Source of the DNA: Zeimonas sediminis
GTDB taxonomy: Bacteria; Pseudomonadota; Gammaproteobacteria; Burkholderiales; Burkholderiaceae_E
Assembly (NCBI RefSeq): GCF_023721795.1
Contig: NZ_JAMQYE010000001.1
Location: forward strand, 1,240,001 to 1,304,000
DNA length: 64,000 nucleotides
Direction of reading: 5' to 3'
Made by a program: the position numbers and the translations under genes. Position 1 is the first letter of the stretch; each line of letters opens with the position of its first letter. Shown here in pieces: positions 28,338 through 49,860 of this stretch. The notes under the pieces were generated by a model that was given only the letters and a program-made list of their open reading frames with translations, had not been told where the DNA came from and did not search any database.

Positions 28338-28713
28338 GGGGCCGACCTGGTTTCGACGTGGGTAGCGAAGCGGCACAGGGCATGCCGAGGCGCCAAGTCC
28401 TCGTAAATCCTTTGGCAAATCTACAAACGCCAACGACGAGCGTTTCGCCCTCGCGGCTTAAACCCCGCGAGCGCCGCAACAGTCAGCCGACGGGCTGGGC
28501 CTGACCGGGCAACCGGAAGGGCTGCGGTGTAACTTCAGTCGGATAGCGCCCGGGCCGGGTCACTTGGTCCAGGCGCGAAACTCAAGGTGACTGGGTGTGC
28601 GGCGGCCTGTCGTTCGGCTAACCGCCCACCGAGATCCAAATAGAGCGACTACGCATGTAGAACTGGTCGTAGAGGACTTGCGGACGCGGGTTCGATTCCC
28701 GCCGGCTCCACCA
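28338..28713 (+). ncRNA. ssrA: transfer-messenger RNA (tmRNA)
   Basis: One-piece tmRNA of about 376 nt that rescues stalled ribosomes. The 5' GGGGCCG pairs with the 3' CGGCTCC before ACCA, with one G-U pair, to form the acceptor stem. GGTTCGATTCC is the T-loop region (28689-28699). The tag frame starts at 28429 and encodes ANDERFALAA, then TAA (28459-28461); this is the betaproteobacterial tag. The last 14 bases (28700-28713) serve as an attachment site for the island that follows. Confidence 0.96.
28700..28713 (+). other. attL: 3' end of ssrA
   Basis: CGCCGGCTCCACCA, the acceptor-stem end of tmRNA including CCA. It is repeated exactly at 49798-49811. The integrase start lies 166 bp downstream, the usual arrangement for integrases using the ssrA 3' end. 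Confidence 0.7.
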
Positions 28714-28744
28714 ATTCACCGTCCAGCGAGGTCCGCTGGAGTTC

Positions 28745-28771
28745 AAAAACCCGCCTAAGTGCGGGTTTTTT
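28745..28771 (+). terminator. terminator following ssrA (element-borne)
   Basis: Stem AAAACCCGC / GCGGGTTTT with a 6-nt loop, followed by further T residues, 32 bp after the tmRNA end. A small hairpin CCAGCG / CGCTGG (28723-28739) precedes it. Because it lies inside the attL-attR interval it was probably supplied by the island and replaces the displaced native terminator. Confidence 0.85.
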
Positions 28772-28878
28772 ATTGGATTTTTCTCCCAACAGAGTCCGGC
28801 GACGTCCATTGACATCCGCTGGCGGCCGGGGGCAACATCCGGGGCAACTCACCAGACCGCCAGGCAGATGCCCCCACA

Positions 28879-30138
28879 ATGCCCCTGACCGACACCGCAA
28901 TCCGGAACGCCAAGCCTGGCCGGACGCCCACCGGGAAGGTGACCGAGAAGCCCTACAAGATGGCCGACTCGGGCGGGCTGTACCTGGAGGTCTCCCCGAC
29001 CGGGGGCAAGTACTGGCGGCTGAAGTACCGGATTGGGGGCAAGGAGAAACGCCTCTCGCTGGGCGTCTACCCGGAGACCCCCCTTGCCAAGGCGAGGACG
29101 CGACGCGACGAAGCCAGGCGGCTGCTTGCCGATGGGATTGACCCGAGCGAGCACCGCAAAGCCATCAGATCGGCACGGGCCGACCGGGCGGCGAACAGCT
29201 TCGAGGTCGTGGCGCGAGAGTGGTACGGGAAGCTCGCGCCGACCTGGAATCCTGCCCACGGCGACCGGATCATTCGGCGCCTCGAACGGGACATCTTTCC
29301 GTGGATCGGCGGGCGGCCGGTGGCGGAGGTCACTGCGCCAGAGCTGTTGGCCGTGCTGCGGCGGATCGAGGCGCGCGGGGCGGTAGAGACCGCGCATCGA
29401 GCGCTCGGCAACTGCGGACAGGTTTTCCGATACGCGATTGCCACCGGCCGGGCCGAGCGCGACCCGTCAAGCGATCTTCGTGGCGCGCTGCCGCCAGTAA
29501 AGGGCGCGCACTTCGCCGCGGTGACCGAACCGGAGCGGTTCGCGGAAGTCCTGCGCGCGCTCGACGGTTATATCGGCACACCTACGGTTCAATGCGCCCT
29601 GCGCCTCGCCCCGCTGGTCTTCGTGCGCCCGGGGGAGCTTCGGAAGGCCCGCTGGGCCGATATCGACCTGGACGCCGCCGAGTGGCGCTACACCGTGACG
29701 AAGACGGGAACCCCTCACATCGTCCCTCTTGCGACGCAAGCCGTGGCGATCCTTCGCGAGCTTCACAAGCTGACCGGGCGAAGCGAATATGTGTTCCCCG
29801 GCGCGCGAACGAACGGACGGCCGATGAGCGACAACGCGATCCTCGCTGCAATGCGCCGGCTTGGCATCCCCAAGGAGGAGATGAGCGGCCACGGCTTCCG
29901 AGCCGTCGCGCGGACAATCCTCGATGAAGTACTGGGCGTTCGGCCCGACCTGATTGAGCATCAACTGGCGCATGCGGTTCGAGATCCGAACGGCCGGGCG
30001 TACAACCGGACTGCGCACCTTCCCGAACGGCGGAAAATGATGCAAGCATGGGCCGATTATCTCGACGCGCTCAAGCGCGGGCCCGCTGCGACGCCGGTTG
30101 CGCATCCCGAGCAACTGTGTTCGCCGACAGCCGAGTGA
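28879..30138 (+). CDS. P4-type tyrosine integrase
   Basis: 419 residues. Site-specific recombinase of the CP4/P4 phage family that inserts islands at tRNA and tmRNA ends. The N-terminal DUF4102 arm-binding domain reads MPLTDTAIRNAKPG...DSGGLYLEVSPTGGKYWRLKYR and ends near KARTRRDEARRLLADGIDPSE. The core-binding domain lies around 115-200. The catalytic set is visible: Arg in RPGELRKARW, His-x-x-Arg in HGFRAVARTIL, His in HQLAHAV, and the nucleophile Tyr in GRAYNRTAHLPERRKMMQAWADYL. It is intact and transcribed away from ssrA. Confidence 0.95.
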   Translation: MPLTDTAIRNAKPGRTPTGKVTEKPYKMADSGGLYLEVSPTGGKYWRLKYRIGGKEKRLSLGVYPETPLAKARTRRDEARRLLADGIDPSEHRKAIRSARADRAANSFEVVAREWYGKLAPTWNPAHGDRIIRRLERDIFPWIGGRPVAEVTAPELLAVLRRIEARGAVETAHRALGNCGQVFRYAIATGRAERDPSSDLRGALPPVKGAHFAAVTEPERFAEVLRALDGYIGTPTVQCALRLAPLVFVRPGELRKARWADIDLDAAEWRYTVTKTGTPHIVPLATQAVAILRELHKLTGRSEYVFPGARTNGRPMSDNAILAAMRRLGIPKEEMSGHGFRAVARTILDEVLGVRPDLIEHQLAHAVRDPNGRAYNRTAHLPERRKMMQAWADYLDALKRGPAATPVAHPEQLCSPTAE

Positions 30139-30213
30139 GCTGTTTCCATTGCCCGAATGGGGAGTTCCAGGCATATCTGCCGCCGATCGATACCAGCATC
30201 CGCCGCCGGCATC

Positions 30214-31038
30214 ATGTCGAACATGGCCGACCACCCTGCTCCCGTGATCCTTCGCCTCGGTGACGGAGCCGTGCTCGTTATTGAGCAGCTGCCCGACGGG
30301 CAGATCCAGCGAACCCGGATCGAGCCGGACGGCTCGACGTCGGTCGAGGTCGTACCGCACCTGCAGTGCAGCCCGTCGATCGCCCTTGCCGCCACTGTGC
30401 CCACTGGGTGCGTAAGCCGCCAGGTGCTGAGGGTGGAGCCGGCCAACCGGGAGTCGGCCACGAGCTGGAAGGACTTCGTTCGGCGCCTGAAGGAGCGCGG
30501 GCTCAACGGGGTGGAGTTCGTGGTGTCGGACGACCACGACGGGCTGAAGAAGGCGGTGGCCGAGCTGCTGCCCGAGGCTGCCTGGCAGCGCTGCTACGTG
30601 CACTTTCTGCGCAACGCACTGGACTACCCGCCGCGCAAGGCCGACGACGACTGCCTGCAGGAGCTGCGCTGGCTGTACGACCGGCGAGATCTGAAGGAGG
30701 CGCAGGCCGACCTGGCGGCGTGGCTCAAGCGCTGGGAGCGGCGCTACCCCAAGCTCACCGACTGGGCCGAGGAGAACATCGGGCAGACGCTGACCTTCTA
30801 CCGGCTGCCGCGCCAGCACCACAAGCACATGAAGAGCACGAACCTGCTGGAGCGGCTGAACGAGGAGATCAAGCGCCGCACGCGGGTGGTTCGGATCTTC
30901 CCCAACCCGGACTCCTGCCTGCGGCTGGTGCGGGCGCTGTGCGCCGAGACGCACGAGGCCTGGCTGGAGGACAACCGCTACATCAACATGGACCTGCTCA
31001 AGGAGCAAAGGAAGGCGGCGATGAAGATCGCCGCCTGA
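30214..31038 (+). pseudogene. chimeric ORF: unknown N-terminus joined to a truncated IS256-family transposase
   Basis: The frame opens with about 66 residues of unrecognised sequence (MSNMADHPAPVILRLGDGAVLVIEQL...). From about 30415 it continues as the C-terminal half of an IS256/mutator transposase: VLRVEPANRESATSWKDFVRRLKERGLNGVEFVVSDDHDGL, WQRCYVHFLRNAL and STNLLERLNEEIKRRTRVVRIFPN with the catalytic Glu. The first catalytic Asp and the whole N-terminal DNA-binding part are missing, so it cannot be an active transposase. The front part may be a beheaded island gene fused by the deletion. Confidence 0.75.
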
Positions 31039-31487: not shown

Positions 31488-32162
31488 ATGAGTCTCGATC
31501 AGAAGCCATTCGCCAGTGCAGAGTTTGTCGACAATCCGGAACCACGATGCGCCTGTTTGCTGCTCCTCGACACTTCAGGCTCAATGTCCGGTGGCAAGCT
31601 TCAACAGCTCAACGAGGGGCTTCGATCGTTCGAAGACGAGCTGAAGGCCGACTCGCTAAGCTCCAAGCGGGTCGAAGTGGCAATAGTTACCTTCGGCCCA
31701 GTTCAAATCCAGGCCGACTTTGTATCCGCCAGCGAATTCTACGCACCGGAGCTGCACGCCGGTGGGGACACACCGATGGGTGCGGCGATCGAACGAGGGC
31801 TCCAACTCTTGCGTGCGAGGAAAGACCAGTACAAGAGCAACGGTATCGCGTACTACCGCCCTTGGGTGTTCCTCATCACGGACGGGGCTCCGACTGATGG
31901 TTGGGGCAATGCTGCCTCGCTCGTTCGCATCGGCGAGGAGAAGAAGGAGTTCATGTTCTATGCGGTTGGCGTGGACAGCGCCGACATGAGCATGCTTAAA
32001 CAACTGTCTGTACGGGAGCCACTGAAACTGAGAGGCATCGCATTCAGAGAACTGTTTGCGTGGCTGTCCGCATCGCTCAGTTCGGTGTCACGGTCCAACC
32101 CTGGCGAGCCTGTGCCGTTGGCGAATCCGGCCGCCCCACAGGGATGGGCAGTGGTCGAATAA
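31488..32162 (+). CDS. TerY-type vWA-domain protein (TerY-P triad)
   Basis: 224 residues, essentially a single von Willebrand factor A domain. The metal-ion-dependent adhesion site is complete: DTSGSMSG (28-35), the Thr in [10 protein letters not shown] (about 103) and ITDGAPTD (about 130). No signal peptide, so cytoplasmic. It matches TerY of the vWA / PP2C / kinase triads (TerY-P) found with tellurium-resistance modules and listed among predicted antiphage systems. An AAGGAG site lies 7 nt before the ATG. It is the first of three same-strand genes. No other ter genes are nearby. Confidence 0.88.
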
Positions 32163-32177
32163 CACATCGGAGAGGCA

Positions 32178-32945
32178 ATGGATCGTTGGATCTGGGTCAG
32201 CGCTTCCCAGATTGGAACATCGCATCGGAGAAGCGGGCAACAACTCCAGGATGCATATTCCTGCTTTACGGTGTTGCCCAGCCTTCGGGAAGTGTTCGTT
32301 GGCATCGTTTCCGACGGCGCCGGGAGCTCCATCTTCGGTCGTCAGGGCGCGGCGCTCATCTGCCGCACGATTGGACTTGCGGCCAGGCGGCACCTGTCCC
32401 TCGGGCACCCGATCCCATGTCGCGACACTCTGGAAAGCTGGGTCGATCAGGCCCGTGACAGGATTTACCGTGCAGCGGCCCACAGAGGCAAGGAGCCTCG
32501 CGACTTCGCGGCCACCCTCGTCTGCGCCATCTCCGATGGGCAGCACTCCGTATTCGCCCACGTGGGGGATGGGTGTGCCGTGACACGCGAGCGCGCCACC
32601 GGAGAGTGGGTCGCACCGACGTGGCCGGATCACGGAGAGTACGCGTCTATGACAAGTTTCGTCACGGATCAACCAGCCGCCAAAGTGCGAGTCTGTACGA
32701 TAAGCGAGGAGATCGACGCAATCGCGATCTTCAGCGACGGCATTGAACGAATGGTTCTCGATATGGCTACTCGGAAACCAGCTGAACGCTTCTTCGCCGC
32801 GGTGGCAGCTCCGGTCACCGACAGCCCCGTTCCCAACGGGAAGGACGCCGCCCTGTCGCGGGCGCTGGCCGCGTACTTGGATAGCGAACAAGTGTGTGCC
32901 CGCACTGACGACGACAAGACCCTAGTCATAGCCACCCTGCGATGA
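32178..32945 (+). CDS. PP2C-family Ser/Thr phosphatase (TerY-P triad)
   Basis: 255 residues. Metal-dependent phosphatase expected to reverse the action of the neighbouring kinase. PP2C motifs in order: QDAYS (early Asp), VGIVSDGAGSS (metal Asp), RDFAATLVCAI, VFAHVGDGCAVT, AIAIFSDGIERMV and TDDDKTLVIATL at the C-terminus with the last metal Asp pair. No membrane segment. It begins 15 bp after the vWA gene with a CGGAGAGG site and overlaps the kinase start by 4 bp (ATGA). Confidence 0.9.
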   Translation: MDRWIWVSASQIGTSHRRSGQQLQDAYSCFTVLPSLREVFVGIVSDGAGSSIFGRQGAALICRTIGLAARRHLSLGHPIPCRDTLESWVDQARDRIYRAAAHRGKEPRDFAATLVCAISDGQHSVFAHVGDGCAVTRERATGEWVAPTWPDHGEYASMTSFVTDQPAAKVRVCTISEEIDAIAIFSDGIERMVLDMATRKPAERFFAAVAAPVTDSPVPNGKDAALSRALAAYLDSEQVCARTDDDKTLVIATLR

Positions 32946-35152
32946 CTGCGCCGCAGGTCATTGCCGCCGGTAAGACGGTCGCTCTGGGCCGCCTCATTGG
33001 GAAGGGCGGTGAGGGAGAAGTCTATGCGATCACAGGAGACCCGAACCACGCTGTCAAGCTGTACACCACGCCGGATCGACTAAGTCGTAAGGACAAGGTC
33101 TCCGCCATGGTCAAGAGCGACCTTGCGACGCGGGCTCCGCTGGCGGCATTCCCCGTCTCCGTGATCCAGTTCAAAGACGGCTCATTCGCGGGCTTCGTGA
33201 TGAGGCTCATGAGCGGCTTCCGGCCGGTCCACGAACTTTATGCACCGGGTTCGCGCAAGCAGCACTTCCCTCAGGCGGACTACCGCTTTCTAGCAAGGGC
33301 CGCAACGAACATTGCCCGAGCCTTCGCATCGATCCATGCCACCAACTGCGTCGTCGGCGACATAAATCACTCGGGCATCCTGGTCTCCGAAAAAGCGACC
33401 GCCGCACTAATTGACGCGGACAGTTTCCAGTTCTCGGACGGCTCGGCTCAGTATCTCTGTCGTGTTGGCGTTCCCGAGTACACGCCGCCGGAACTTCAAG
33501 GTAAGGCACTTCGTGGAATTGTTCGAACCACTGACCATGACGCATTTGGGCTTGCGGTCGTCATCTTCCAAGTGCTCCTTATGGGTCGGCATCCGTTTGT
33601 TGGCACGGTGAGAAATGGAGACATCCCGCCGCTGCATGAGAACGTTCGGAACTTCAAGTACGTGTACACCGAGAGTCGCAATGTCGGGATGGATCAACCC
33701 CCCGGGACACCGTCGCTACCGGACTTCTCACCGGAACTTGCGCGGATGTTCGACCGCGCCTTCCTGCAAAGTTCCATCGGCAGGAGACCATCTGCGAACG
33801 AATGGGTGACGTCTCTCGAGAGGTTCGAATCGACGCTCGCTCAATGCGCAGAGAACCCACTCCACTACGGGCCTCGAGATGCATCCGAATGCGCGTGGTG
33901 TGAGATGGAGGGTCAACTCGGGACTTTCCTATTCGTTCCGCACTTTCCCTCTGGGCCTGGAACTCGGCAAGTTGACCCCGGCAGGGAGCGCTTCGACATT
34001 GAGATCATTTGGGCTCGCATTGAGCGAGTCAAGATCCCATCTCCAGAAGAGCTCCAGCCACGCATCCCTCAGTCGGCCACGCACGGTCCCTCCGAAGCTG
34101 CGATACAGGCGAAGGAGGTTAAATTCAAGGGCCGTTCTGTCATCGGCGTTGCGCTAATTGTTGCTGGTTTTGGGCTAGTGCTTGCTGCTCCGGAGGCTTG
34201 GCTCTTGTCCTTGATTCTCGCCGGCATAGGTCTGTCAAACCTTGGCTCCAAAGGGGCCACACCTGCGATCGATGGCACACGGTTTCTACGCGAGTTGCTC
34301 GACGCTCAAAACCAATGGAATAGAGAGATCGAAGCTTGGCGTCGGCGCGTTGGGCATAGCGACCTCGTGTCTCTGAAGGATGAACTTCGAGTCGCTCGGC
34401 AAAAGTTCATTGCGGCAAGAGACGAAGAGCATCGTAAGATTTCCGACTACAAGACAGAACGATATGACCGGCAAAGGAGCGCCTATCTAGAAAATTTTGA
34501 CATCGATCGCGCCGGCATCAAAGGCATTGGGCAGGCAAAGATCGCTGTCTTGTCGTCATTTGGTATCGGAACCGCCGCAGACATTTCAAGTTCACGACTT
34601 AAGGCCGTACCGGGCTTTGGTGACGCGCTGATCGGAAGGCTCGTTGCTTGGCGTCAGGCGCACGAAAGTCGCTTCGTTTACGATGCATCGTCAAACGACG
34701 CTGATCGGCGGGAGATGGCACGGATCTCCTCCCTGGTCGAAGCGAAGCTTTCCCCGTTACGGCGCACGCTGACCAGCGGTGCACATGAACTGGAGCAGCG
34801 AGCTCGGCGCGTTCAGGAATTCGCACAACGAGAGGATCCCGTCCTTATTAGCGTTCACCGCCGGCTAATGCAGGCGCGAGCGGACGTGGGGTTTCTGAAC
34901 ATTCGCGTTCCAAACTCAGCGCCGCTCGGCTCCGTGTCGATGCCTAGTCCACGTGCTAGTCAGCCAGGACTGCCTCAGGCTCCGCAGTCGTCTCGGTCGC
35001 CTACACAGGGGCAATCACCACGTGTCGCGCCATCGTGTCCCAGGTGCGGTAGCCCCATGCGGCAGCGCATGGCCCGGCGCGGCCGAAATGCCGGAAGCTA
35101 CTTCTGGGGATGCTCACGCTACCCACGCTGCAAAGGAACCCGTTCCGCATGA
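32942..35152 (+). CDS. Ser/Thr protein kinase with membrane hairpin, HhH and topoisomerase-type zinc finger (TerY-P triad)
   Basis: 736 residues. Kinase domain 12-295: Gly-loop IGKGGEGEVYAI, Lys39 in HAVKLY, catalytic Asp140 in VVGDINHSG, DFG-equivalent DADSF (158-162) and PEY-TPPEL. The Asn expected five residues after Asp140 is Gly145. CAWCEMEG lies near 318. Two hydrophobic helices (about 398-440) suggest membrane attachment, followed by a charged coiled-coil-like stretch. A helix-hairpin-helix region (about 525-570: IKGIGQAKIA, VPGFGDALIG) and a C-terminal C4 zinc finger (CPRCG...CSRYPRCKG, about 698-731) suggest nucleic-acid contact. The same layout is known for TerY-P kinases. Confidence 0.9.
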   Translation: MTAPQVIAAGKTVALGRLIGKGGEGEVYAITGDPNHAVKLYTTPDRLSRKDKVSAMVKSDLATRAPLAAFPVSVIQFKDGSFAGFVMRLMSGFRPVHELYAPGSRKQHFPQADYRFLARAATNIARAFASIHATNCVVGDINHSGILVSEKATAALIDADSFQFSDGSAQYLCRVGVPEYTPPELQGKALRGIVRTTDHDAFGLAVVIFQVLLMGRHPFVGTVRNGDIPPLHENVRNFKYVYTESRNVGMDQPPGTPSLPDFSPELARMFDRAFLQSSIGRRPSANEWVTSLERFESTLAQCAENPLHYGPRDASECAWCEMEGQLGTFLFVPHFPSGPGTRQVDPGRERFDIEIIWARIERVKIPSPEELQPRIPQSATHGPSEAAIQAKEVKFKGRSVIGVALIVAGFGLVLAAPEAWLLSLILAGIGLSNLGSKGATPAIDGTRFLRELLDAQNQWNREIEAWRRRVGHSDLVSLKDELRVARQKFIAARDEEHRKISDYKTERYDRQRSAYLENFDIDRAGIKGIGQAKIAVLSSFGIGTAADISSSRLKAVPGFGDALIGRLVAWRQAHESRFVYDASSNDADRREMARISSLVEAKLSPLRRTLTSGAHELEQRARRVQEFAQREDPVLISVHRRLMQARADVGFLNIRVPNSAPLGSVSMPSPRASQPGLPQAPQSSRSPTQGQSPRVAPSCPRCGSPMRQRMARRGRNAGSYFWGCSRYPRCKGTRSA

Positions 35153-35581: not shown

Positions 35582-36373
35582 ATGACAGCCTTATATTGGC
35601 AGCTGGCCGTAGTCTCTACGGTTCTCTTGGCGGGGATCTTTCTAAGCAGGCGCGCCGCGCTACTCGCCGCCATTGGCTGGACGATATGGACGTTCCTGAA
35701 GGTTCGGTATCCGAAGCTAATGGTCATTCAGGGTGGCCTTGCTTGGGGCGCCTACCTTGGTGTCGTTGTCTATCAGAACATGCACGGCGCCGTCGCCGAA
35801 GCCGACAATCGCGCGAAGGCGCTGGCAGCGCAGCTTGCCCAAGTTGCAGCGTCTGAGCGGCTTGTCGCCTCGGCCGTCCAGCATCCTCCCAGCGGTTCAT
35901 GGACTGTCATAGATGGGAAGCAGCATCGCGCGGCCCTGTTCAAGGCTTTCTCCGACGCCCGAACGGTTCTCTGCATCGCGTCTGGGTGGCTTGGAAGCGC
36001 GGCTGCCGATCAGCAGTTTCTTGTGGAATTGAAGAACGCGCTCCGAAGAGGCGTAGATGTCTACCTCGCCTACGGATGGCAAACATCCGCAGGGACTCAT
36101 GAAACTTCACGTGTAACAGACATTGCGCTCAGCGAACTGCGTGAGATCGCCCGCTCTTCCGATGCGTCGCGAGGGGAACTACATGTCGGCTGTTATGCGA
36201 ACCACGAAAAGCTCGTGATTGTTGATGACTATCTCATCGTCGGCAGCTTCAACTGGCTATCTAATCGTCAAGTTACTAACAACGAACGAAGCGTTCGCAT
36301 CGACGACCCCGCCTTCGCCAGCAAGGAAGCGCAGCGACTCAAGCGCTTGGTCGCACAAGATCGCGTGCTCTGA
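35582..36373 (+). CDS. membrane-anchored phospholipase-D-family protein with one HKD motif
   Basis: 263 residues. Two N-terminal hydrophobic segments (about 5-60) anchor the protein; a short helical linker (ADNRAKALAAQLAQVAASERL) leads to a PLD domain from about 100. One HKD signature is present, NHEKLVIVDDYLIVGSFNW (His-x-Lys-x4-Asp), so an active enzyme would be a dimer, as in Nuc/BfiI-type nucleases. KNALRRGVDVYLAYGW is typical PLD-fold sequence. It lies 430 bp after the TerY-P kinase. It may act as an effector that cuts DNA or attacks lipids at the membrane, which is inference. Confidence 0.8.
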   Translation: MTALYWQLAVVSTVLLAGIFLSRRAALLAAIGWTIWTFLKVRYPKLMVIQGGLAWGAYLGVVVYQNMHGAVAEADNRAKALAAQLAQVAASERLVASAVQHPPSGSWTVIDGKQHRAALFKAFSDARTVLCIASGWLGSAAADQQFLVELKNALRRGVDVYLAYGWQTSAGTHETSRVTDIALSELREIARSSDASRGELHVGCYANHEKLVIVDDYLIVGSFNWLSNRQVTNNERSVRIDDPAFASKEAQRLKRLVAQDRVL

Positions 36374-38037: not shown

Positions 38038-38250
38038 ATGCAAGACCTTCCCGAAACCGGCTTTGCCAGGCTGCCGGTCGTCCTGGCCCATGTGCCTCTG
38101 AGCCGCTCCACGCTGTGGGCCAGGATCAAGGCCGGACAGTTCCCCGCTCCCGTCAAGCTCAGTTCTCGCGTGACCGCCTGGCGCGTCGAGGACTTGCGCG
38201 CGTGGATCGAAGCGCAGGGGCGCCCCTCGACCGGCGGAGGTCGGGGATGA
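38038..38250 (+). CDS. AlpA-family excisionase/regulator
   Basis: 70-residue MerR-like winged-helix protein of the AlpA type, common in islands with P4-type integrases, where it activates integrase/excision. LPVVLAHVPLSRSTLWARIKAGQFPAPVKLSSRVTAWRVEDLRAWIEAQG carries all the hallmarks: Ser-Arg-Ser-Thr-Leu-Trp helix, FPxPVKL wing and AWRVEDLRAW. The stop overlaps the next start (ATGA), so its expression is tied to the DUF3631 protein. Confidence 0.9.
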   Translation: MQDLPETGFARLPVVLAHVPLSRSTLWARIKAGQFPAPVKLSSRVTAWRVEDLRAWIEAQGRPSTGGGRG

Positions 38251-41200
38251 TGAACAACAAGAGACACCCGGCCGGTAGTGCGGCACAGGAGCCCGAAAGT
38301 CCTGACCGCCTCAACAGCCTTGCCGACCAACCCGAAGCGCGTAAGTCGGCTGGCGCGCCGAAATTCGCATGGCTTCCCGCGCGTTTCCTCATGAAGGGTC
38401 CGGTCGCCAGCCGAGACTACCTCACGATCGTCTCGACGCGCATGCCCTGCGGCAAGCATGTCCATCTCGACGACGAAGGGGCGGCCGTCTGGGAAAGCCG
38501 CGGCGACGTGATCGAGGGCGACACCGTTACCGCTTACGTACCCGATGTCTCGGCGATGGGCCAGTTGCTCGAGATTCTGCCCGCGAACCGCTACCTGATC
38601 CCGGACTTCGTGCCGGGCACCGAGGGGCTGTCCACGCCGTTTCGGATTCACAGCCAGAAGAATCTCTCCCGCCTGCTCTCCGAGAGGGGGATCGAACACA
38701 ATGCCACCCGACCCGCCGGCCTTTTCAAAGTGCCGCGGCGCGGCGGGACCGGTGAGGTGGTCCACGTCGCCAAGCTCAAGGAGAACTTCACGCCTGGGGC
38801 GTGGCGCCTCTTCGACTTCGACCGCGACGAGCACACGCCGGCGGACATCGCCGCCTTGGCGCCCGAAGAAGCGGTGCGAAGGCTCGAACAGGCCCTGCCC
38901 GGGCTCGCCGGGTGCGCCCGGGTGATCGTGCCGAGCTCGAAGGGGCGGGTTTGCCGCGCGGACGGCTCGCCGCTCAGCGCGAGCCCGAACTTTCACATGT
39001 GGGTCCAGGTCGGCGACCCGGAACAGACCGACGAGTTCCGCGAGCGGCTCCGGCCGCAGCTCTTCCGCGAAGGCCTTGGCTGGCGTAAGCCGAAGTTCGC
39101 GCGCAACGCGCCGGGCAAGCCGATCGGATCCGCGCCGGCGGCGATTGTCGACGCGAGTGTGTGGGCGATCAGCCGCAGCGTCTACGCCGGCGCGCCGGCG
39201 GTAGGCGACGGGCTCGTGCTCGCGCCTGCCGAGCCCGTCGTGACGGCCGGGCACCGCTTCGTGCTCGGCGCGCTGCCTGCGCCCGACGACAAGGCCCTGC
39301 GGGTCTATGAGGAAGGAGCCGGCGTAAAAGTCGAGCGGGACGACGCCGGCAAGCTCGTTCAGCGCGATTACGTCTCGCTCGTGCCCGATACACTGCTCGA
39401 CGTGAAAACGCCCGGCGGTGCGTTCCGGGCGCTAACGCTGCGCGAGTTTCTCGACAGCCCCGAGTTCGAGGCCGGGATGAAGTACCGCTGCCAGGCGCCT
39501 TTCCGGGATTCCACCTCCGAGAACGGCATCCTGCGCAAGCACGACAACGGCCGCGCGACGGTACACGACAACGGCACCGGCATCACCTATTTCTACAGCC
39601 CGCCCGGCGGCCTGGCGGCCTTGACCGCAGTGCTCGGCAGGGAGCCCGCCGAGCTCATGACGGCGCGCATCGACGAACTGGCCCAGCTTGCCACGCTTGC
39701 ATACGAGCGCTGCCGAAAGGACGAGGCAAAGCAGCTCGGGCTGCGTGTGACCATGCTCGACGCGGCGGTGCAGGAGGCGCGCAAGCGCCTCGGACTTGTC
39801 GAGCACGAGGGCGCCGACGGCGCGCAGGGTCGCGCGCTTCGATTCGAGGATCCGGAACTCTGGCCTGAGTCCGTCGATGGCGCGGTACTGCTTGACGAGA
39901 TCACGTCGATCTTCTCGCGGTACGTGTCGCTGCCGCGGCACGGTGATGTGGTGCTCGCTCTGTGGGTGTTGTTCACCTATGTCATCGATTCGGCGACGCA
40001 CGCGCCACTGCTCGTACTTACCTCTCCGGTCAAGCGCTGCGGCAAGAGTCGGACTTTCGACGTGTTGGCCCGTCTCGTCCGGCGCCCGCTGCCTACCAGC
40101 AACGTGACGGTCGCGGCGTTGTTCCGAGTCATCGAGCAACACATGCCGACCGTGCTGCTGGATGAGCTTGACGCGCTCCTCGAGGGCGACAAGACGGGCG
40201 AGCTGCGCGGGCTCGTCAACGCTGGCCACAGCCGCACTGCCGCATACGTACTGCGTACCGTGGGCGACGAGCATGAGACTCGGGCCTTCAACGTCTGGTC
40301 GCCGAAGGCGCTGGCGTTGATCGGCGACCTCGCGAGGAAGTGGAGCACGGTGGCCGACCGGGCCGTGGCCATCCGAATGCAGCGCAAGCCCGCCAACTGC
40401 AGGCTGCCGCGACTGCCGCGCGACGACGCCGCATTCGGCGACCTGCGGCGAAGGATCGCGCGCTGGGCGGACGATCAGGCCGACTGGCTGCGCGACGCCG
40501 AACCGCCGCTGCCGGACAGCCTGAACGACCGCGCAGCCGACAACTGGCACATCCTCGTGGCCATTGCGGACGCGGCGGGCGGTCATTGGCCGGCCGCTGC
40601 CCGGGCCGCGGCACTCGCACTGTCTGCTCAGGAAAGCAGCGTGAATGCGACAGATGAAGGCGCGGGGGTACGTCTGCTGGCCGACATCCGGGACATCTTC
40701 ATGCGGCTCGGCATCGACCGCATCCGGTCTGAATCGCTGACGCACGAACTGGCCGAAATCGACGACCCCGAGGCGCCCTGGTCTGACTGGAATTCACGCA
40801 CACGTGTGGTGGCGCACGGCATCGACGCACGCCAAGTGGCACGGCAGTTGGCGCCGTTCGGCATTCGTCCGCGTTCCATCAGGTTGGTCCCCGGCGCCGC
40901 TGAGAGGGAAGGCCTCCGGCGGTTCGGCATCAAGCCGAGCGGCACCGGCGCAGAGTCCGCTAAGGGATACCTCCGGGAGCAATTCAACGATGCGTTCGAG
41001 CGCTATCTTTCGCCGCACAACACGGCTTCGCAGCCGGAGTCGGCCGATTCATCCGGCACACCGGCACAATCCAGCATTCATGAGGCTTTCGGGCCGATTG
41101 ACCCATCCGTCACGGCCGCTTGTGTGACGGGTGCCGAATCGCCCGGAAACCCGCGCCAGTCCTCGTTTGTGCCGGTGTTACGGACGGAAACCCAGGGCGC

Positions 41201-41320
41201 GGCCCGAGAGAAAGAACGTCACGGCTACTGTCTGATCTGCGGGGAGCCGGGAGCGTCTGGCCTGTGCAACGACTGTCGCCACCGCGACGGGGTGGAAGGC
41301 GGCCACGAGGGGGCGACGAC

Positions 41321-41324
<4 letters not shown>
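38247..41324 (+). CDS. large DUF3631-type P-loop NTPase, probable island replication protein
   Basis: 1025 residues. N-terminal about 500 residues are of unclear fold, perhaps primase-like (SASPNFHMWVQVGDPEQTDEF). A P-loop NTPase follows: TSPVKRCGKSRTFDVLARL (about 590-608, Walker A) and TVLLDELDALLEGD (about 634, Walker B). NRAADNWHILVAIADAAGGHWPAAAR-type sequence near 760 is the DUF3631 signature. A Cys cluster CLICGEPGASGLCNDC ends the protein. AlpA-plus-DUF3631 blocks are typical of integrative islands, probably for replication. The start MMNNKRHPAG overlaps alpA and the end overlaps the ProQ-like gene. Confidence 0.8.
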
Positions 41325-41761
<437 letters not shown>

Positions 41762-44415: not shown

Positions 44416-45090
44416 TCAGGTTGCGCTCCTGGAGCGCGGACGCCTGCCGCGGGATTCCCCGTCGGACTCGCGGCGTGTGCGGGTTCCCGGCGCGACTTGC
44501 CCGAAAGCCTCAGTCGACAGCCGACTGCGGATTGACACGATGGTCCCGCGCGACACCCCGTATTGCCTTGCCACGGCGGTCACCGTTTCCCCGCCGGCCA
44601 GGCGGCGAACTATCTCCGAGCGCTGCATTTCGGTCGTCTTGGCGGGTCGGCCGAACTTCTTGCCTTGCGCCCGAGCACGTGCCTGGCCAGCAAGGGTTCG
44701 CTCGATGATCAGGTCGCGCTCGAAGTCTGCCACCGCCGCGAGCACCTTCACGGTCATCTCGCCGGTGGAGGACGTTAGGTCCAGACCACCGAGTTGCAGA
44801 ACGTGCAGGCGGATGCCTCGCTGCTTGCAGAGCTGCACGGTGTGCTGGACGTCGATCGAGTCGCGGCCAATGCGGTCAAGCTTGGTGACGACCAGGGTGT
44901 CCCCCTCTTCCAGCTTGTCCATCAGCTTTGTGAAGCCTGGCCGCTGCAGGGCCGGCACCGATCCGCTGATCTTCTCTTCGATGTACCGGCGAGGCTGAAT
45001 CGCGAAGCCGGCCTGCTCGATCTCGGCGAGCTGATTGACCGGATGCTGGTCAATGGTCGAGACCCGAGCGTAGGCGAACACGCGAGACAT
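44416..45090 (-). CDS. serine recombinase (resolvase/invertase family)
   Basis: 224 residues. The small serine recombinase domain (1-135) has the catalytic Ser in FAYARVSTIDQ, then YIEEKISGSVPALQRPGFTKLMDKLEEGDTLVVTKLDRIGRDSIDV with the conserved Arg residues and AVADFERDLIIERT before the E-helix. KKFGRPAKT and the C-terminal helix-turn-helix (GETVTAVARQYGVSRGTIVSIRS) bind DNA. A basic Ser/Arg tail ends it. The start MSRVFAYARVS is at 45090. Repeats resembling a res site lie directly upstream. It probably belonged to a Tn3-type or invertible element; no Tn3 transposase is present. Confidence 0.9.
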   Translation of the reverse strand: MSRVFAYARVSTIDQHPVNQLAEIEQAGFAIQPRRYIEEKISGSVPALQRPGFTKLMDKLEEGDTLVVTKLDRIGRDSIDVQHTVQLCKQRGIRLHVLQLGGLDLTSSTGEMTVKVLAAVADFERDLIIERTLAGQARARAQGKKFGRPAKTTEMQRSEIVRRLAGGETVTAVARQYGVSRGTIVSIRSRLSTEAFGQVAPGTRTRRESDGESRGRRPRSRSAT

Positions 45091-45103
45091 GGCGACCTCC
45101 AAA

Positions 45104-45383: not shown

Positions 45384-45947
45384 ATGTATTGTTCGCAGTG
45401 CGGTGTTCTGAATACGAATGGCGCTCGCTACTGTTCGGCCTGTGGTGCCGAACTCGTTTTGTCAACGAACGGCGAATCGCAGGTTCAGGCTCGATCCGCT
45501 GAGCTCTCCGTGCGCTACGCGGGCTTCTGGTATCGGGCGTTGGCGGCCTTGATTGACACCGTTCTAGTCAACGTGACGGCCTTCTTCGTCGTGATTCCGC
45601 TGGCGATTAGCATGGGGCTATCCATGTCGGATAGCTCGTCTGCGGAAGAGATTGAAGCCGCTGGCCAGGGGCTTGGATTTCTGTTGAGTATGCTAATCCA
45701 ATGGTTGTGGTTCACGATTGGAGAGTCGTCTTCTTGGCAGGGATCCGTCGGCAAGAAAATGCTCGGCCTGCGAGTCACTGATGAGAAAGGGCGCAGAATC
45801 AGCTTTGGTCGCGCAAACGGACGGTATTGGGGAAAAATTGTCTCGGCGCTAATTCTGTTTATCGGTTTCCTTATGGCGGCGTTCACTGAGCGCAAGCAGG
45901 CGCTACATGACAAGATGGCGGGAACACTCGTGATCAAGGCGCGCTAG
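45384..45947 (+). CDS. RDD-family membrane protein with N-terminal zinc ribbon
   Basis: 187 residues. The N-terminus MYCSQCGVLNTNGARYCSACGAEL is a four-Cys zinc ribbon. The RDD domain starts at VRYAGFWYRALAALIDTVLVNV, in which the usual Arg-Asp-Asp pattern reads R-A-x-x-D, and continues with two more membrane helices; WQGSVGKKMLGLRVTDEKGRRISFGRA is the conserved loop and LHDKMAGTLVIK the end. RDD proteins are poorly understood membrane proteins, some linked to ion exchange. It stands alone between the res-like region and the Nudix gene. Confidence 0.85.
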   Translation: MYCSQCGVLNTNGARYCSACGAELVLSTNGESQVQARSAELSVRYAGFWYRALAALIDTVLVNVTAFFVVIPLAISMGLSMSDSSSAEEIEAAGQGLGFLLSMLIQWLWFTIGESSSWQGSVGKKMLGLRVTDEKGRRISFGRANGRYWGKIVSALILFIGFLMAAFTERKQALHDKMAGTLVIKAR

Positions 45948-46049
45948 TAAGGACAATGTGGGGTTATCCGGTTATTGCTTCCGAGCTCACTGGATCGATC
46001 AAACAGAACGTACGATGAGTGGCGCCTACCTGGGGGAGGAGCGCTGATT

Positions 46050-46442
46050 TTGAAGCTCGTTGCAGCCGCCGTAATTGAACAAAACGGTGTAATCCTTCTT
46101 GCTCGAAGAGCTCCGGGCCAGAAGCTTGCCGGGTTGTGGGAATTTCCCGGCGGAAAGGTCGAGAACGGAGAGTCGCTGGAGGAATGTCTGCGTAGAGAGT
46201 TGGCTGAAGAGCTCCAGATTTCATGTTCGATCGGAAACCTGGTCGCCGAGTCTGACTACCACGATAGCGAAGGCGCGATTCGTCTTCTCGCTCTGCGAGC
46301 GACCATTTTGAGTGGGGAGATCTCCCTCACTGTTCACGACGAGGTCTGCTGGCTGCGGCCGAAAGATCTGGAGTCGGTCCCTTTGGCTCCTGCCGACATC
46401 CCAATAGCTCGGTTTTTGAGGGAGAGCGCGCATGGCATTTGA
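46050..46442 (+). CDS. MutT-like Nudix (d)NTP pyrophosphohydrolase
   Basis: 130 residues if translation starts at TTG 46050, which has a GGGGGAGGAG site 8 nt upstream and gives the usual MutT N-terminus (MKLVAAAVIEQNGVILLARRAP). A longer frame from 45975 is possible. The Nudix box is GGKVENGESLEECLRRELAEELQI, complete except that the late Gly is Gln. LAGLWEFPGG matches the 8-oxo-dGTPase/CTP pyrophosphohydrolase group. It overlaps the SRA-HNH gene by 11 bp, so the two are made together. Substrate unknown. Confidence 0.85.
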   Translation: MKLVAAAVIEQNGVILLARRAPGQKLAGLWEFPGGKVENGESLEECLRRELAEELQISCSIGNLVAESDYHDSEGAIRLLALRATILSGEISLTVHDEVCWLRPKDLESVPLAPADIPIARFLRESAHGI

Positions 46443-47253
46443 ACCCGGTCTTGTACGCGGGCAGATCATCGATAACAGTACGCTCTCAGCCCTCTTCAAG
46501 TGCAGCTCCCAGGGCGGGATGAGACGCTCTCGGGTGACGAACACGCTGGTGCTCGTGTCGAACCACGTGGAATCTATTTATGATGATCGGTGGCTGGGCG
46601 ACATTTTTCACTACACAGGCATGGGTCAGGAGGGCGATCAGGCGCTCAGTTTCATGCAGAACAAGACGCTGGCAATGTCCCGAACGAACGGGGTGGACGT
46701 GCATCTGTTTGAAGTGGACAGGCCGCGTCAATATCAGTATCAGGGGCGAGTGGTACTTGCGGCGGACCCGTATGAGGAAATCCAGCCCGACCAGAAGGGG
46801 ACGGATCGGCGCGTATGGGTGTTTCCGCTGCGACTGGTGGAAGGTGTACCGACTTCGGTTTCACAGCGCGATTTTGAGGAGGAGCGCCAGCACCGTGAAA
46901 GGAAGGCACGGAGGCTATCCAATGCTGAACTGAGGTTGCGGGCTCAACGTGCTCCGAAATTGGCAGGCGACCGGATAGTCACTGGGAGACAGTACGAGAG
47001 GAATCCGTATGTCTCCGAGTTCGCGAAGCGACGGGCGAATGGGTATTGTGAACTATGTTCAGAGCCGGCGCCGTTCAGTAATGCGCGTGGCGAGCCTTAT
47101 CTCGAAACCCACCACATAGTCTGGCTAGCCCTGGGCGGCGAGGACAGCACTGAAAACACAGTAGCCTTGTGCCCTAACTGCCACAGACGAATGCACGTCC
47201 TTGATGAGGATGCCGATAAGGAGAAATTGCGAGCGAGGCTGGCGTCGTCGTAA
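46432..47253 (+). CDS. SRA-like / HNH endonuclease, probable type IV restriction enzyme
   Basis: 273 residues in two parts. The first (about 8-140) has the pattern of ScoMcrA-type SRA domains, which read modified cytosines: RWLGDIFHYTGMGQEGDQAL, NKTLAMSRTNGVDVHLFEV, YQGRVVLAADPYEEIQPDQKGTDRRVWVFPLRL. The second (about 200-262) is an HNH nuclease: YCELCSEPAPF, ETHHIVWLALGGEDSTENTVALCPNCHRRMH with both zinc Cys pairs and the HH-N-H residues. I infer cutting of DNA carrying modified bases, as known for SRA-HNH proteins. The start overlaps the Nudix stop, so they form an operon. Confidence 0.82.
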   Translation: MAFEPGLVRGQIIDNSTLSALFKCSSQGGMRRSRVTNTLVLVSNHVESIYDDRWLGDIFHYTGMGQEGDQALSFMQNKTLAMSRTNGVDVHLFEVDRPRQYQYQGRVVLAADPYEEIQPDQKGTDRRVWVFPLRLVEGVPTSVSQRDFEEERQHRERKARRLSNAELRLRAQRAPKLAGDRIVTGRQYERNPYVSEFAKRRANGYCELCSEPAPFSNARGEPYLETHHIVWLALGGEDSTENTVALCPNCHRRMHVLDEDADKEKLRARLASS

Positions 47254-47347
47254 GCTCCCCTAGCCGTCCGGGGCCGCGCATAAAGTTGCCTATCGGCCCA
47301 CGCTGAAGACGACACGCATTGCTCACATTGGGACGATGGAGGTTCGG

Positions 47348-48046
47348 ATGTCGAAGGATGGTGACGAAGTCCGAAGCAGCCTCGCCTGGCTCACCAATGA
47401 CGAACTCGTATCTCAGATACGCTCTGGAAACTTGACGGAGGACGCGCGGCGGATTGCGGAGGAACTTCTTGTAGAAAGGGGGGCAGCCGCTTTGCGTCCA
47501 CACGTGAAGCCGGCCGCAGAATCCGATCTCGCCTTCTTATCTCGCTGTTTCCGCGGCGAAGCGAGCCTCAACGACGCGTTTTGGGTCCTCGGCTTCGGCA
47601 TCGGATTGACTGTCTGGTCCCCCGTGTTTCTTGTCGGGATACTCCTGAACCCAACCTCAACGCACACCTTCTCAGGGGCCGTTGTCTCCTCACTTCTCGG
47701 TGGAGCCCTATTCGGAACCATCGGGGCGGGAGGCATTGGCCTGCTTGTCCTTGTTCCGACTCTCATCGTTCAGGGTCACGGCTTAGTGGAGCCCCTCATT
47801 TCGCCTCTTTCGACGGCATCTACGTCGCCAACAGCACCACTCGCCGTTGGAAGTGCGTTGATTGCTGTCTCTCTTGCTGCGTTCGCTGCCACCATCTTTC
47901 GAGACTTCGCAACTTGGCGCTGCGCCTCCAATTCGAAGACCGTTTTCATGGGCGTCGTCGCGCGTGTATGGATCTTCTTCACATATGTTTCTTCTCTGAT
48001 CGCTCTGCTGTTGGTGTTTCTCGGCAGCTTAGGCGGAGCCGCATAG
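47348..48046 (+). CDS. multi-pass membrane protein, unknown function
   Basis: 232 residues, starting at the ATG at 47348, which has GGAGG 7 nt upstream; an ATG 12 bp earlier lacks one. The N-terminal 40 residues (SSLAWLTNDELVSQIRSGNLTEDARRIAEELLVERG) form a small amphipathic helical module seen at the front of various membrane proteins. Four hydrophobic helices follow (about 75-100, 110-140, 165-190, 205-232). No family recognised. Downstream are 216 bp without a gene and then integron cassette sequence. Confidence 0.6.
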   Translation: MSKDGDEVRSSLAWLTNDELVSQIRSGNLTEDARRIAEELLVERGAAALRPHVKPAAESDLAFLSRCFRGEASLNDAFWVLGFGIGLTVWSPVFLVGILLNPTSTHTFSGAVVSSLLGGALFGTIGAGGIGLLVLVPTLIVQGHGLVEPLISPLSTASTSPTAPLAVGSALIAVSLAAFAATIFRDFATWRCASNSKTVFMGVVARVWIFFTYVSSLIALLLVFLGSLGGAA

Positions 48047-48262
48047 ACACCGATCAGCGCAGCGCGATCCATGGCGAACTAGCTGCCGAAATACCATGCA
48101 CGTGAGGCTCGTACTATCCGGATAGGTTCGCTTGGCGTTACGTCTGAGGTGGGAGCGTGGCAGAGAGGAAAAAACTTGCAGCGACAAGCACTTTACGAGA
48201 AGGGGGGTAGGTTACGGTGGTGGGTTTAGATTTGACTGGCTGCGTGCTGCGAATCAAATCAC

Positions 48263-48272
48263 GTTAGGCGTC
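48263..48272 (+). other. attC/attI-type 3' core site (GTTAGGCGTC)
   Basis: GTTAGGC followed by GTC lies 4 bp before the ATG of the next gene, the normal spacing between a cassette recombination core and its gene. The same ten bases end the full attC at 48863-48946. No matching GCCTAAC was found in the preceding 200 bp, so the left half of this site is lost or diverged. Confidence 0.6.
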
Positions 48273-48276
48273 AAAA

Positions 48277-48834
48277 ATGCACTCGCGCAGCCCCGCTCTT
48301 GCTTCGCTGCATCGGCTGATGGCCTTTGCCCAGTCCGTCATGGTGCGCCGGATGATCGAAGGAATCGCGCTCGAACCCAAGCAGACGTTCTGGATCATGA
48401 CCGTGAACCTGCTGCTGGATTCGGCAGTCATCGACTGGTGCACGGTCTTCGGATCCCGGGCTGAAGACACCCACTGGACACGAGTCATCCCGAAGGAACG
48501 GCATGCAGATGTGCGTGCGGGTCTGCTGAGCGCGCTTGTCCTGAGCGCGGACGATTGGGAAGCGTACCAAAACAGCATCGTTGTGTTTCGGGACCAGATG
48601 GTTGCCCATCATGACCTCAATGCAGCAGTGGAGAGGTACCCGCACTACGACGTCGCCTTCGCCGCCGCTGACTTCATGTTTACGGTGATCCGGGATCTCG
48701 CCGACCCGGATTCTCTTGGCGGCGTACCGTCTTCGCTAGATTTTTGGGCCCGCACCGTTGCGGGCAACATGTCAGCAATCGTCAGGGCCGCGTTCGACGC
48801 AAGCGCGCAGCTTGGCTCGAATATCCCCGGGTGA
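48277..48834 (+). CDS. integron cassette gene, unknown function (HEPN-like motif)
   Basis: 185 residues, helical, without signal or membrane segment. MIEGIALEPKQTFWIMTVNLLLDSAVIDWCTVFGSRAEDTHW is followed by WEAYQNSIVVFRDQMVAHHDLN, in which Arg-x5-His resembles the R(x)4-6H motif of HEPN RNases. VRRMIEGI and FAAADFMFTVIRDLADPD are further helices. It starts 8 bp after a GTTAGGC core and ends 28 bp before a full attC, so it is a complete gene cassette. Function not established. Confidence 0.65.
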   Translation: MHSRSPALASLHRLMAFAQSVMVRRMIEGIALEPKQTFWIMTVNLLLDSAVIDWCTVFGSRAEDTHWTRVIPKERHADVRAGLLSALVLSADDWEAYQNSIVVFRDQMVAHHDLNAAVERYPHYDVAFAAADFMFTVIRDLADPDSLGGVPSSLDFWARTVAGNMSAIVRAAFDASAQLGSNIPG

Positions 48835-48862
48835 GCCATATGCCAACAGTCGGCATGCTAGT

Positions 48863-48946
48863 GACGCCTAACCATTCTTTGCACCCGATCTGCCACAGCG
48901 GACTTCGCCCGCTTCCGCAGGCGGGTGAACTCAAACGTTAGGCGTC
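48863..48946 (+). other. attC recombination site (integron)
   Basis: GACGCCTAAC (48863-48872) and GTTAGGCGTC (48937-48946) are exact inverted repeats containing the R'' and R' cores GCCTAAC and GTTAGGC. Inside, TTTGCACCCG and CGGGTGAACTCAAA form imperfect inner arms with unpaired bases, and CCCGC / GCGGG forms an inner hairpin. This is the folding expected for attC recognised by IntI as single-stranded DNA. Confidence 0.82.
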
Positions 48947-48948
48947 GC

Positions 48949-49509
48949 ATGAAAGAGTTCTTAATGTTCGCAGCAGGAGCAGCCATCGGAGGCCTGCTGT
49001 CCTGGCTGATCACACACCGCTACTACATCAAAGCCGGCGCAGACCAGCGCGCCGAACTGGACAGGTTGTCTGCAGACCTGAGACCACGCAACACGTTGGA
49101 GAACTTTGAGCGAATGCTTGAGTCGAGCAACTGGACCAAATCAGTTATAGACCACACAGAAGTCTGGATAGCTGACGCTGACAATACCTACCAAATTGAA
49201 ATCGGCGAACGAACACGAGAGTTCACCGAACGCTGGACGACCGTGCACCCAGATCCGAACAGCTCCGCTTATCCTGTTTATTTGAAGCTGAATGGCGCAA
49301 CCATCAAGGAACTGACATTCATCGCCATGGACGGTGGTCGGATCTTCGTTCCAATGGCAGGAGTCCGGCAGGCCGGCGCGAATGAGGTCGAGTACTTCTG
49401 GAACCTGAACAGCCTCGAGGTCAAGGTATGCAGAATCATCGGCGCATACTATCTCTACGAGAACCTGGAAGGTGTGGCAACGCGATCCAAAGTCGCCATC
49501 GTGGCGTAG
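48949..49509 (+). CDS. integron cassette gene: single-helix membrane protein, unknown function
   Basis: 186 residues, starting 5 bp after the GTTAGGC core. MKEFLMFAAGAAIGGLLSWLITHRYYIK is one N-terminal membrane helix; the remainder is soluble and beta-rich (WIADADNTYQIEIGERTREFTERWTTVHPDPNSSAYPVYLKLNGATIKELTFIAMDGGRIFVPM), probably facing the periplasm. No family recognised. Downstream, GACGCCTGAT (49511-49520) looks like a damaged R'' core, suggesting that this second cassette lost its attC when the following IS landed. Confidence 0.65.
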   Translation: MKEFLMFAAGAAIGGLLSWLITHRYYIKAGADQRAELDRLSADLRPRNTLENFERMLESSNWTKSVIDHTEVWIADADNTYQIEIGERTREFTERWTTVHPDPNSSAYPVYLKLNGATIKELTFIAMDGGRIFVPMAGVRQAGANEVEYFWNLNSLEVKVCRIIGAYYLYENLEGVATRSKVAIVA

Positions 49510-49596
49510 CGACGCCTGATCTGAGTCGGGGATCCTGGACCATTCTGAGCGTTAGTTTTTCGGCAAACTGTCCTTTGGGAGAGGGAGAGGTTTGTC

Positions 49597-49797
49597 GTGA
49601 GGAAGAGCCGGTTTTCGGTCGAACAAATCGTGGCGGTGCTCAGGCAGGCGAAGGTGGAATCGGCCGTGCGGCCCAAGCCGGATGCCAGAGCGACGGACCC
49701 GGCAGCAAGCCGGCGGGGGCAACTCTGGGGGCACATAGCGAAGCGATGCCGCCGTAAAGCAAGCGTTCATGAGGGTTTCGGAAATCTGTTCGGTAGA
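49597..49797 (+). pseudogene. truncated IS3-family transposase OrfA
   Basis: MRKSRFSVEQIVAVLRQAKVE is the start of an IS3-type OrfA helix-turn-helix protein. After about 20 residues the similarity stops and the frame runs through unrelated sequence into attR. The catalytic OrfB is absent. It is the last recognisable island content before the right boundary. Confidence 0.6.
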
Positions 49798-49811
49798 CGC
49801 CGGCTCCACCA
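49798..49811 (+). other. attR: repeat of the ssrA 3' end
   Basis: CGCCGGCTCCACCA, identical to the last 14 bases of tmRNA at 28700-28713, same orientation. Flanking bases differ on the left and right. The adjacent long hairpin on the right would be the ancestral ssrA terminator. Confidence 0.65.
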
Positions 49812-49812
49812 T

Positions 49813-49860
49813 TGAAAGCAAAACGGGCTGCCCCGAAAGGGGTGGCCCGTTTTGCTTTCA
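49813..49860 (+). terminator. long GAAA-loop hairpin, probable native ssrA terminator
   Basis: A 22-bp stem (TGAAAGCAAAACGGGCTGCC... with its complement) closed by a GAAA loop (49835-49838); two G-U pairs, otherwise perfect. It begins 2 bp after attR. On an uninterrupted chromosome it would lie 2 nt beyond the tmRNA CCA end. The descending arm contains CCCGTTTT. Confidence 0.65.

What the first reader, a model, noticed from the sequence alone, without database searches (positions are those of the whole stretch)
28700..49860. ssrA-borne genomic island with both attachment ends and displaced terminator
The last 14 bases of tmRNA recur exactly at 49798-49811, a P4-type integrase stands next to the first copy, and a 22-bp GAAA-loop hairpin fit to be the ssrA terminator starts 2 bp beyond the second. 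The interval contains only accessory genes. ssrA is a known integration site for this integrase type. The boundary call combines visible repeats with family knowledge.
Basis: partly seen in the sequence, partly recalled or inferred. Interest (0 to 1): 0.7.

Follow-up and report, generated by a model that had tools for sequence, protein, structure and literature searches.

The report
Gene island inside tmRNA gene end
A 21-kb piece of foreign DNA has slotted into the very end of an essential bacterial RNA gene; it pushed that gene's stop signal away and appears to bring a replacement stop signal of its own, as many relatives of its insertion enzyme do.

Summary
Confirmed. tmRNA (28338-28713) ends in a 14-mer found exactly once more, at 49798-49811. 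In same-genus G007 ssrA joins directly to the sequence from 49812; G004 and G021 agree. The 21,098-bp island carries a P4-type integrase. Its far end looks intact: GGGGCA[ACT] pairs occur on the + strand only at 28829/28841 and 49716/49728, the arm-site layout annotated in phage P4.

Of 143 RNA-gene-to-integrase intervals, window included, 108 hold a forward terminator; 30 have one on the reverse strand; shuffles average 6.7. Hairpin starts cluster at +32 to +36 (71 of 108). E. coli CP4-57 and phage S1 carry one too; P4 does not by my rule. Termination itself is inferred. PMC13023037 (2026) reports a displaced tRNA terminator and attenuating stem-loops for ICEKp1.

Verdict: new member of a known kind, with a regular, little-described att layout. 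A conserved structured element beside ssrA was noticed in passing.

The parts
28338..28713 (+). ssrA (tmRNA), intact, CCA encoded
28700..28713 (+). attL core, 14 bp (last 14 bases of tmRNA)
28721..28745 (+). first 10-bp-phased RTCCR array: GTCCA 28721, GTCCG 28731, degenerate GTTCA 28741 (+8, +18, +28 after CCA)
   Evidence: first two; the third by eye; phase control
28745..28770 (+). island-borne terminator-like hairpin (10 pairs, 6-nt loop) with T tail; proposed replacement ssrA terminator
   Evidence: family survey
28794..28818 (+). second RTCCR array: 28794, 28804, 28814 (+81, +91, +101)
28828..28847 (+). int-proximal arm-type site pair (GGGGGCAAC / GGGGCAAC, 12 nt apart)
   Evidence: likeness to P4 arms
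28868..28885 (-). inverted arm-type sites at the int start, as in P4
   Evidence: P4
28879..30138 (+). P4-type tyrosine integrase, 419 aa (Arm-DNA-bind_3, Phage_int_M, Phage_integrase)
30199..31038 (+). Transposase_mut protein matching only profile positions 194-378 of 379: probable remnant
31488..32162 (+). VWA-domain protein (first gene of a VWA-PP2C-kinase trio)
32178..32945 (+). PP2C-type phosphatase
32942..35152 (+). protein kinase with C-terminal Zn_ribbon_Top1
35582..36373 (+). PLD-like protein (partial PADLOC matches to MkoB, MkoC, DrmC)
38038..38250 (+). AlpA-type regulator, candidate excisionase
38250..41324 (+). DUF3631 protein, 1024 aa as translated
41120..41761 (+). ProQ/FinO family
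44416..45102 (-). serine resolvase
45384..45947 (+). RDD membrane protein with zinc ribbon
46053..46442 (+). Nudix hydrolase
46432..47253 (+). HNH endonuclease (PADLOC mREase_IV match)
49715..49735 (+). far-side arm-type site pair (GGGGGCAAC / GGGGGCACA, 12 nt apart)
   Evidence: P4
49798..49811 (+). attR core, exact 14-bp copy
49813..49860 (+). displaced native ssrA terminator hairpin (22 pairs, GAAA loop)

Best explanation
A 21,098-bp integrative island entered the 3' end of ssrA through its own P4-type tyrosine integrase. Shown by sequence: the 14-bp core is duplicated; arm-type site pairs lie inside both ends; relatives have the uninterrupted site; ssrA keeps an intact CCA end. Inferred: recombination inside the 14 bp leaves tmRNA intact in both states and moves the native terminator 21 kb away, while the island end supplies a replacement at +32 to +57 after CCA. 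This should stop ssrA transcription and shield int, which would then be driven from the arm-site-rich region just before its start codon, where Int could repress itself. Excision (Int plus perhaps the AlpA-type protein) would restore ssrA joined to its own terminator.
For: Exact 14-bp core at both ends. Empty site in G007, G004 and G021. P4-type integrase domains; 34% identical to CP4-57 IntA. Arm-type pairs at both ends and nowhere else on the + strand of the 64 kb; P4's annotated arms are the same motif in the same layout. Terminator: 108 of 143 intervals (window included) have one in the first 110 nt (tmRNA 65 of 76, tRNA 43 of 67), against 30 of 143 on the reverse strand, 14 of 141 further downstream, and mean 6.7, maximum 14 in 30 shuffled sets. 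40 distinct 7-bp stems in 89 of 143 loci, including double-sided changes such as AACCCGC/GCGGGTT to AACCGGC/GCCGGTT (no shuffle control). RTCCR peaks at +8, +18, +28, +71, +81, +91, +101; at least 3 of 7 in 54 of 143 loci against 0-3 at the 12 shifted phases. E. coli K-12 CP4-57 and the attP region of phage S1 carry a strong hairpin with a U tail after the core.
Against: No excision, transcription or termination was measured. 35 of 143 intervals have no terminator by my rule (6 of them Legionella or Legionellaceae), and 14 of those 35 still have at least 3 RTCCR sites; P4 has none by the rule, so the hairpin is common but not essential to the layout. The rule also misses the S1 hairpin because of its loop limit, and its best hairpin for the window is a longer one starting at +15 that contains 28745-28770. 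No sigma-70 consensus promoter was found in 28690-28900. The joined attP was not found in viral contigs. The right flank beyond 49906 is not collinear with G007. The 143 intervals share ancestry; only exact duplicates were removed.
Confidence: 0.88

Rival explanations
1. The hairpin at 28745-28770 is not a terminator but part of the recombination machinery (spacer, DNA bend or protein site between the two RTCCR arrays).
For: Clustered position between two phased arrays; arrays persist in loci without a terminator (at least 3 of 7 sites in 14 of 35, against 40 of 108 with one) and in P4, which has none by the rule.
Against: Strand bias, 108 forward against 30 reverse; the T tail follows the hairpin on the ssrA strand; 40 different stems with preserved pairing fit a terminator better than a protein site. 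Both roles could coexist.
Confidence: 0.2
2. Integrase is expressed by read-through from the ssrA promoter, with the hairpin only as an attenuator, as reported for ICEKp1.
For: PMC13023037 (abstract, passages, section 22 read): tRNA-asn promoter drives int, stem-loops attenuate. Same orientation here, and no consensus promoter was found.
Against: The hairpin has a canonical stem and T tail; 114 of 143 intervals have direct plus inverted 7-mer repeats in the last 95 nt before int (mean 3.5, maximum 8 in 20 mononucleotide shuffles), suggesting a separately regulated start.
Confidence: 0.25
3. The island is a defective remnant that can no longer move.
For: Truncated transposase match; patchy GC; no packaging or conjugation gene recognised in the ORFs scanned.
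Against: Full-length integrase, AlpA-type protein, perfect 14-bp cores and both arm-type pairs are present.
Confidence: 0.3
4. The 14-bp repeat is chance and the island ends elsewhere.
For: With up to 2 mismatches the pattern matches 7 times (2 exact) against a shuffle mean of 2.14 in this GC-rich window.
Against: Exact copy, arm-type sites beside it, and three empty sites joined at that base.
Confidence: 0.02

Closest known systems
CP4-57 cryptic prophage in E. coli K-12 ssrA
   Same: P4-type integrase beside ssrA in the same orientation; RTCC sites (10 and 20 bp apart in two groups) and a strong hairpin with a U tail between ssrA and intA
   Different: Integrase 34% identical; hairpin at +44 by the rule and RTCC sites at other offsets; its attR reads CGCCAGCCCACCA, one base short, and excision changes ssrA (PMC10107115, passages), whereas here the core is perfect
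Satellite phage P4 attP
   Same: GGGGGCA arm-site pairs on both sides plus an inverted copy at the int start; RTCCR at +18, +28, +91, +101
   Different: Different core (its target, leuX, is recalled); no terminator there by the rule; P4 sid, delta and psu were not recognised among the island ORFs scanned
ICEKp1 (PMC13023037)
   Same: Insertion displaces the RNA gene's terminator; stem-loops before int reduce read-through
   Different: tRNA-asn target and a conjugative element; its stem-loops are called a potential terminator, with int driven by the tRNA promoter
Stenotrophomonas phage S1
   Same: Integrase 56% identical; upstream of it an arm-type pair, a CTCCACCA core and a strong hairpin with U tail in the same order, core and arms read by eye
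   Different: A phage genome with a different core; its hairpin escapes my counting rule

Membership tests
Integrative genomic island at ssrA | Direct repeat of the gene's 3' end at both boundaries | tested here: met
Integrative genomic island at ssrA | Uninterrupted site in relatives | tested here: met
   3 of 19 fetched same-family relatives with a readable ssrA end
Integrative genomic island at ssrA | Excised circle with joined attP | tested here: inconclusive
   0 exact matches in viral contigs; no reads available
P4-type tyrosine integrase elements | Integrase with Arm-DNA-bind_3, Phage_int_M and catalytic domains | tested here: met
   alignment with IntA
P4-type tyrosine integrase elements | Arm-type sites on both sides of the core | tested here: met
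   by sequence likeness to the sites annotated in P4; binding not tested
P4-like phage satellite | Helper-exploitation genes (sid, delta, psu) | tested here: not met
   none recognised: 22 ORF stretches scanned with Pfam, 10 with PHROGs; not every ORF was scanned
Integrative and conjugative element | Relaxase and conjugation genes | tested here: not met
   none among 22 ORF stretches scanned with Pfam; not every ORF was scanned

The most novel reading that the evidence does not exclude
P4-type attachment sites are built as a transcription-terminator exchange: a dedicated terminator sits at a near-fixed distance from the crossover, between two 10-bp-phased arrays, so that integration at any tRNA or tmRNA gene swaps the host terminator for one carried by the element and excision swaps it back, keeping the essential RNA gene terminated and int insulated in both states.
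Probability: 0.5. Interest if true: 0.6.

Novelty: new member of a known kind. Interest (0 to 1): 0.45.

Why it matters
tRNA and tmRNA genes are favourite island targets (general knowledge), and insertion at their 3' ends should cost the gene its terminator. A built-in replacement would explain how essential RNA genes tolerate insertion and how int stays quiet next to a strong promoter. It would also help find island ends, because core, arm pairs and terminator keep regular spacing.

Tried and rejected
A right-arm search with RTCCR-like motifs at 49398-49797 found no phased array. I first read RTCCR as the Int arm sites; P4's annotation showed that GGGGGCA repeats are the arms, so RTCCR is a second, unassigned class (candidate: excisionase sites, inference only). 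I first took 49597-49815 for an IS3 fragment by eye; Pfam gave nothing, so this is dropped. Second copies of the ssrA end in 17 genomes did not give clear far ends (its list was cut). A first terminator rule over-extended stems and counted 55 of 86 and, loosened, 98 of 143; the corrected and slightly looser rule gave 108 of 143, and its shuffles rose too (from 0-5 to a mean of 6.7). Of 170 integrase loci, 22 had no RNA gene within 500 nt upstream and 5 were exact duplicates; these were dropped. In taking the 60 loci ranked after the best 30 I skipped two matches cut at contig ends. Viral contigs: 45 of 78 loci had enough upstream sequence; 27 of these 45 had a terminator (6 of 11 with, 21 of 34 without a recognised RNA gene), but several of the 34 clearly contain RNA-gene ends, so I use only L308 and the near-identical L328/L360 as likely free attP sites. 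Plasmids: no DNA match. Fetched but not analysed: L297-L300, L245.

Literature seen: PMC13023037 (abstract, passages, section 22); PMC10107115, PMC2951348 and PMC3146451, passages only; all others search listings only. A fixed-position terminator in P4-type att sites did not show in the listings; the library lacks most subscription papers.

Full report
Observation. tmRNA lies at 28338-28713. Its last 14 bases recur exactly at 49798-49811 and nowhere else in the window. Right after the second copy lies a hairpin of 22 pairs with a GAAA loop, pairing from 49813. The integrase ORF starts 165 nt after the first copy.

Empty site. ssrA was sought in the own genome and 40 relatives; 35 of 41 matched. 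Twenty stretches around matches in the same family were fetched, of which 19, one per genome, had a readable CCGGCTCCACCA end; the more distant matches were not counted. In G007 the left flank is collinear up to 28713 apart from 1.7 kb extra in G007, and the next base aligns with 49812 onward (sequence). G004 and G021 show the same join. Four relatives (G011, G017, G014, G015) have a related integrase beside ssrA. The other 12 have different sequence after CCA; in G013 and G022 a diverged copy of the native terminator was found elsewhere, about 19 kb downstream on the same contig and on another contig respectively. Ten remain unexplained, including G006, whose tmRNA is 99% identical. The site therefore looks like a hotspot. 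The right flank is supported only over 110-214 nt, because window and G007 differ again from 49906 to 57561.

Both ends. P4's record annotates arm repeats containing GGGGGCA on both sides of its core and an inverted one at the int start. In the window, pairs of GGGGCA[ACT] 8-16 nt apart occur on the + strand only at 28829/28841 and 49716/49728, both 12 nt apart, and on the - strand only at the int start, 28885/28874. With one core counted, the element spans 28714-49811, 21,098 bp. The core is perfect, so excision should rebuild a normal tmRNA end (inference). PMC10107115 (Table 1, seen as a passage) lists one- to five-base losses for the six P4-type ssrA elements shown there, and CP4-57's attR shows one.

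Contents. Integrase; Mutator-type transposase remnant; VWA, PP2C and kinase trio (the resemblance to TerY-type trios is recalled; one search gave only a listing); PLD-like; AlpA; DUF3631; ProQ; resolvase; RDD; Nudix; HNH. Partial or weak PADLOC matches (MkoA and PD-T4-6 for the kinase, MkoB and MkoC for the PLD protein, mREase_IV for HNH, PDC-S50 for 48925-49509) hint at defence cargo but prove nothing. G014's contig has the same length as a contig titled Burkholderiaceae, so the host is probably in or near that family.

Replacement terminator. The interval after CCA holds a 10-pair hairpin with a T tail at 28745-28770 (z -4.2 for 28714-28775 against shuffles). To test whether this is general I took the 30 best loci of an order-wide integrase search, window included, and the next 60 in rank with two skipped, plus 80 named loci. 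148 of 170 have a tRNA or tmRNA gene within 500 nt upstream on the same strand; dropping 5 exact duplicates left 143 intervals (86 and 57 from the two sets), median 165 nt. 108 of 143 have a forward terminator in the first 110 nt, 30 of 143 on the reverse strand, 14 of 141 further downstream; 30 shuffled sets gave mean 6.7, maximum 14. Of the 108, 71 start at +32 to +36. Stems vary while pairing holds: 40 distinct 7-bp stems in 89 of 143 loci (no shuffle control). Against universality: 35 of 143 lack it, and P4 lacks it by the rule.

Second layer. RTCCR peaks at +8, +18, +28 and +71, +81, +91, +101 (25-74 of 143 loci each, against a mean of 3.0 per position). 54 of 143 loci have at least 3 of the 7; 12 shifted phases give 0-3. 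These sites are as frequent without a terminator (14 of 35) as with one (40 of 108). P4 has them at +18, +28, +91, +101. Direct plus inverted 7-mers occur in the last 95 nt of 114 of 143 intervals, against a mean of 3.5 in mononucleotide shuffles; in the window and P4 these are the arm-type repeats. The layout is therefore core, array 1, terminator (usually), array 2, arm sites, int. Upstream of its integrase phage S1 has an arm-type pair, a CTCCACCA core and a strong hairpin with U tail in that order (the hairpin escapes my counting rule). Viral contigs L308 and L328/L360 look alike. This indicates that the hairpin belongs to the element and not to the host.

How it probably works. Shown: layout, empty sites, conservation. 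Inferred: Int recombines the 14-bp core; ssrA ends at the island hairpin while integrated and at its own terminator when empty; int starts downstream and may be self-repressed through the arm sites. PMC13023037 shows experimentally for ICEKp1 that insertion displaces a tRNA terminator and that stem-loops before int reduce read-through, so the principle has a precedent; what the survey adds is the regular position and the breadth.

Verdict. Finding confirmed; ordinary in kind, with an att architecture more regular than I found described in the searches named in Tried and rejected.

Noticed in passing
window 49868-50016; L033, L024, L244, L029, L049: A structured element follows the native ssrA terminator: fold z -7.9, 24 of 52 consensus pairs with two-sided changes in 6 sequences. 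A model built from these six finds it in 33 of 399 genomes of the order at E <= 1e-4, own genome and two other model sources included; 13 of the 30 loci given there also hold a tmRNA gene by ARAGORN. No Rfam family reached its cut-off over it.
   Followed up: partly
L249, L253, L256, L261, L278, L287, L229; L283, L290: In 7 of 18 tmRNA loci printed, that element ends in a second direct copy of the host's own tmRNA tail (at most one mismatch in 20), and an inverted T-arm copy lies near its start; tRNA-Leu and tRNA-Thr versions appear in tandem. Could be a tiny tail-copying mobile element, a tandem duplication or an RNA gene; unexplained.
   Followed up: partly
G319 C1:1561139-1562012 (L296): Five copies of the element in tandem with a 186-nt period, about 6.5 kb downstream of a copy beside ssrA, and preceded by another copy of the tmRNA tail and terminator.
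   Followed up: partly
window 31488-35152: VWA, PP2C and kinase genes in a row; each matches a PHROG of unknown function (phrog_28389, phrog_37072, phrog_37888), so phages carry relatives.
   Followed up: no
window 49906-57560: Segment right of the island has no nucleotide match of 60 nt or more in the G007 stretch, which has its own 7.3 kb there; OsmC and a regulator lie in it. The neighbourhood is variable beyond the island.
   Followed up: partly
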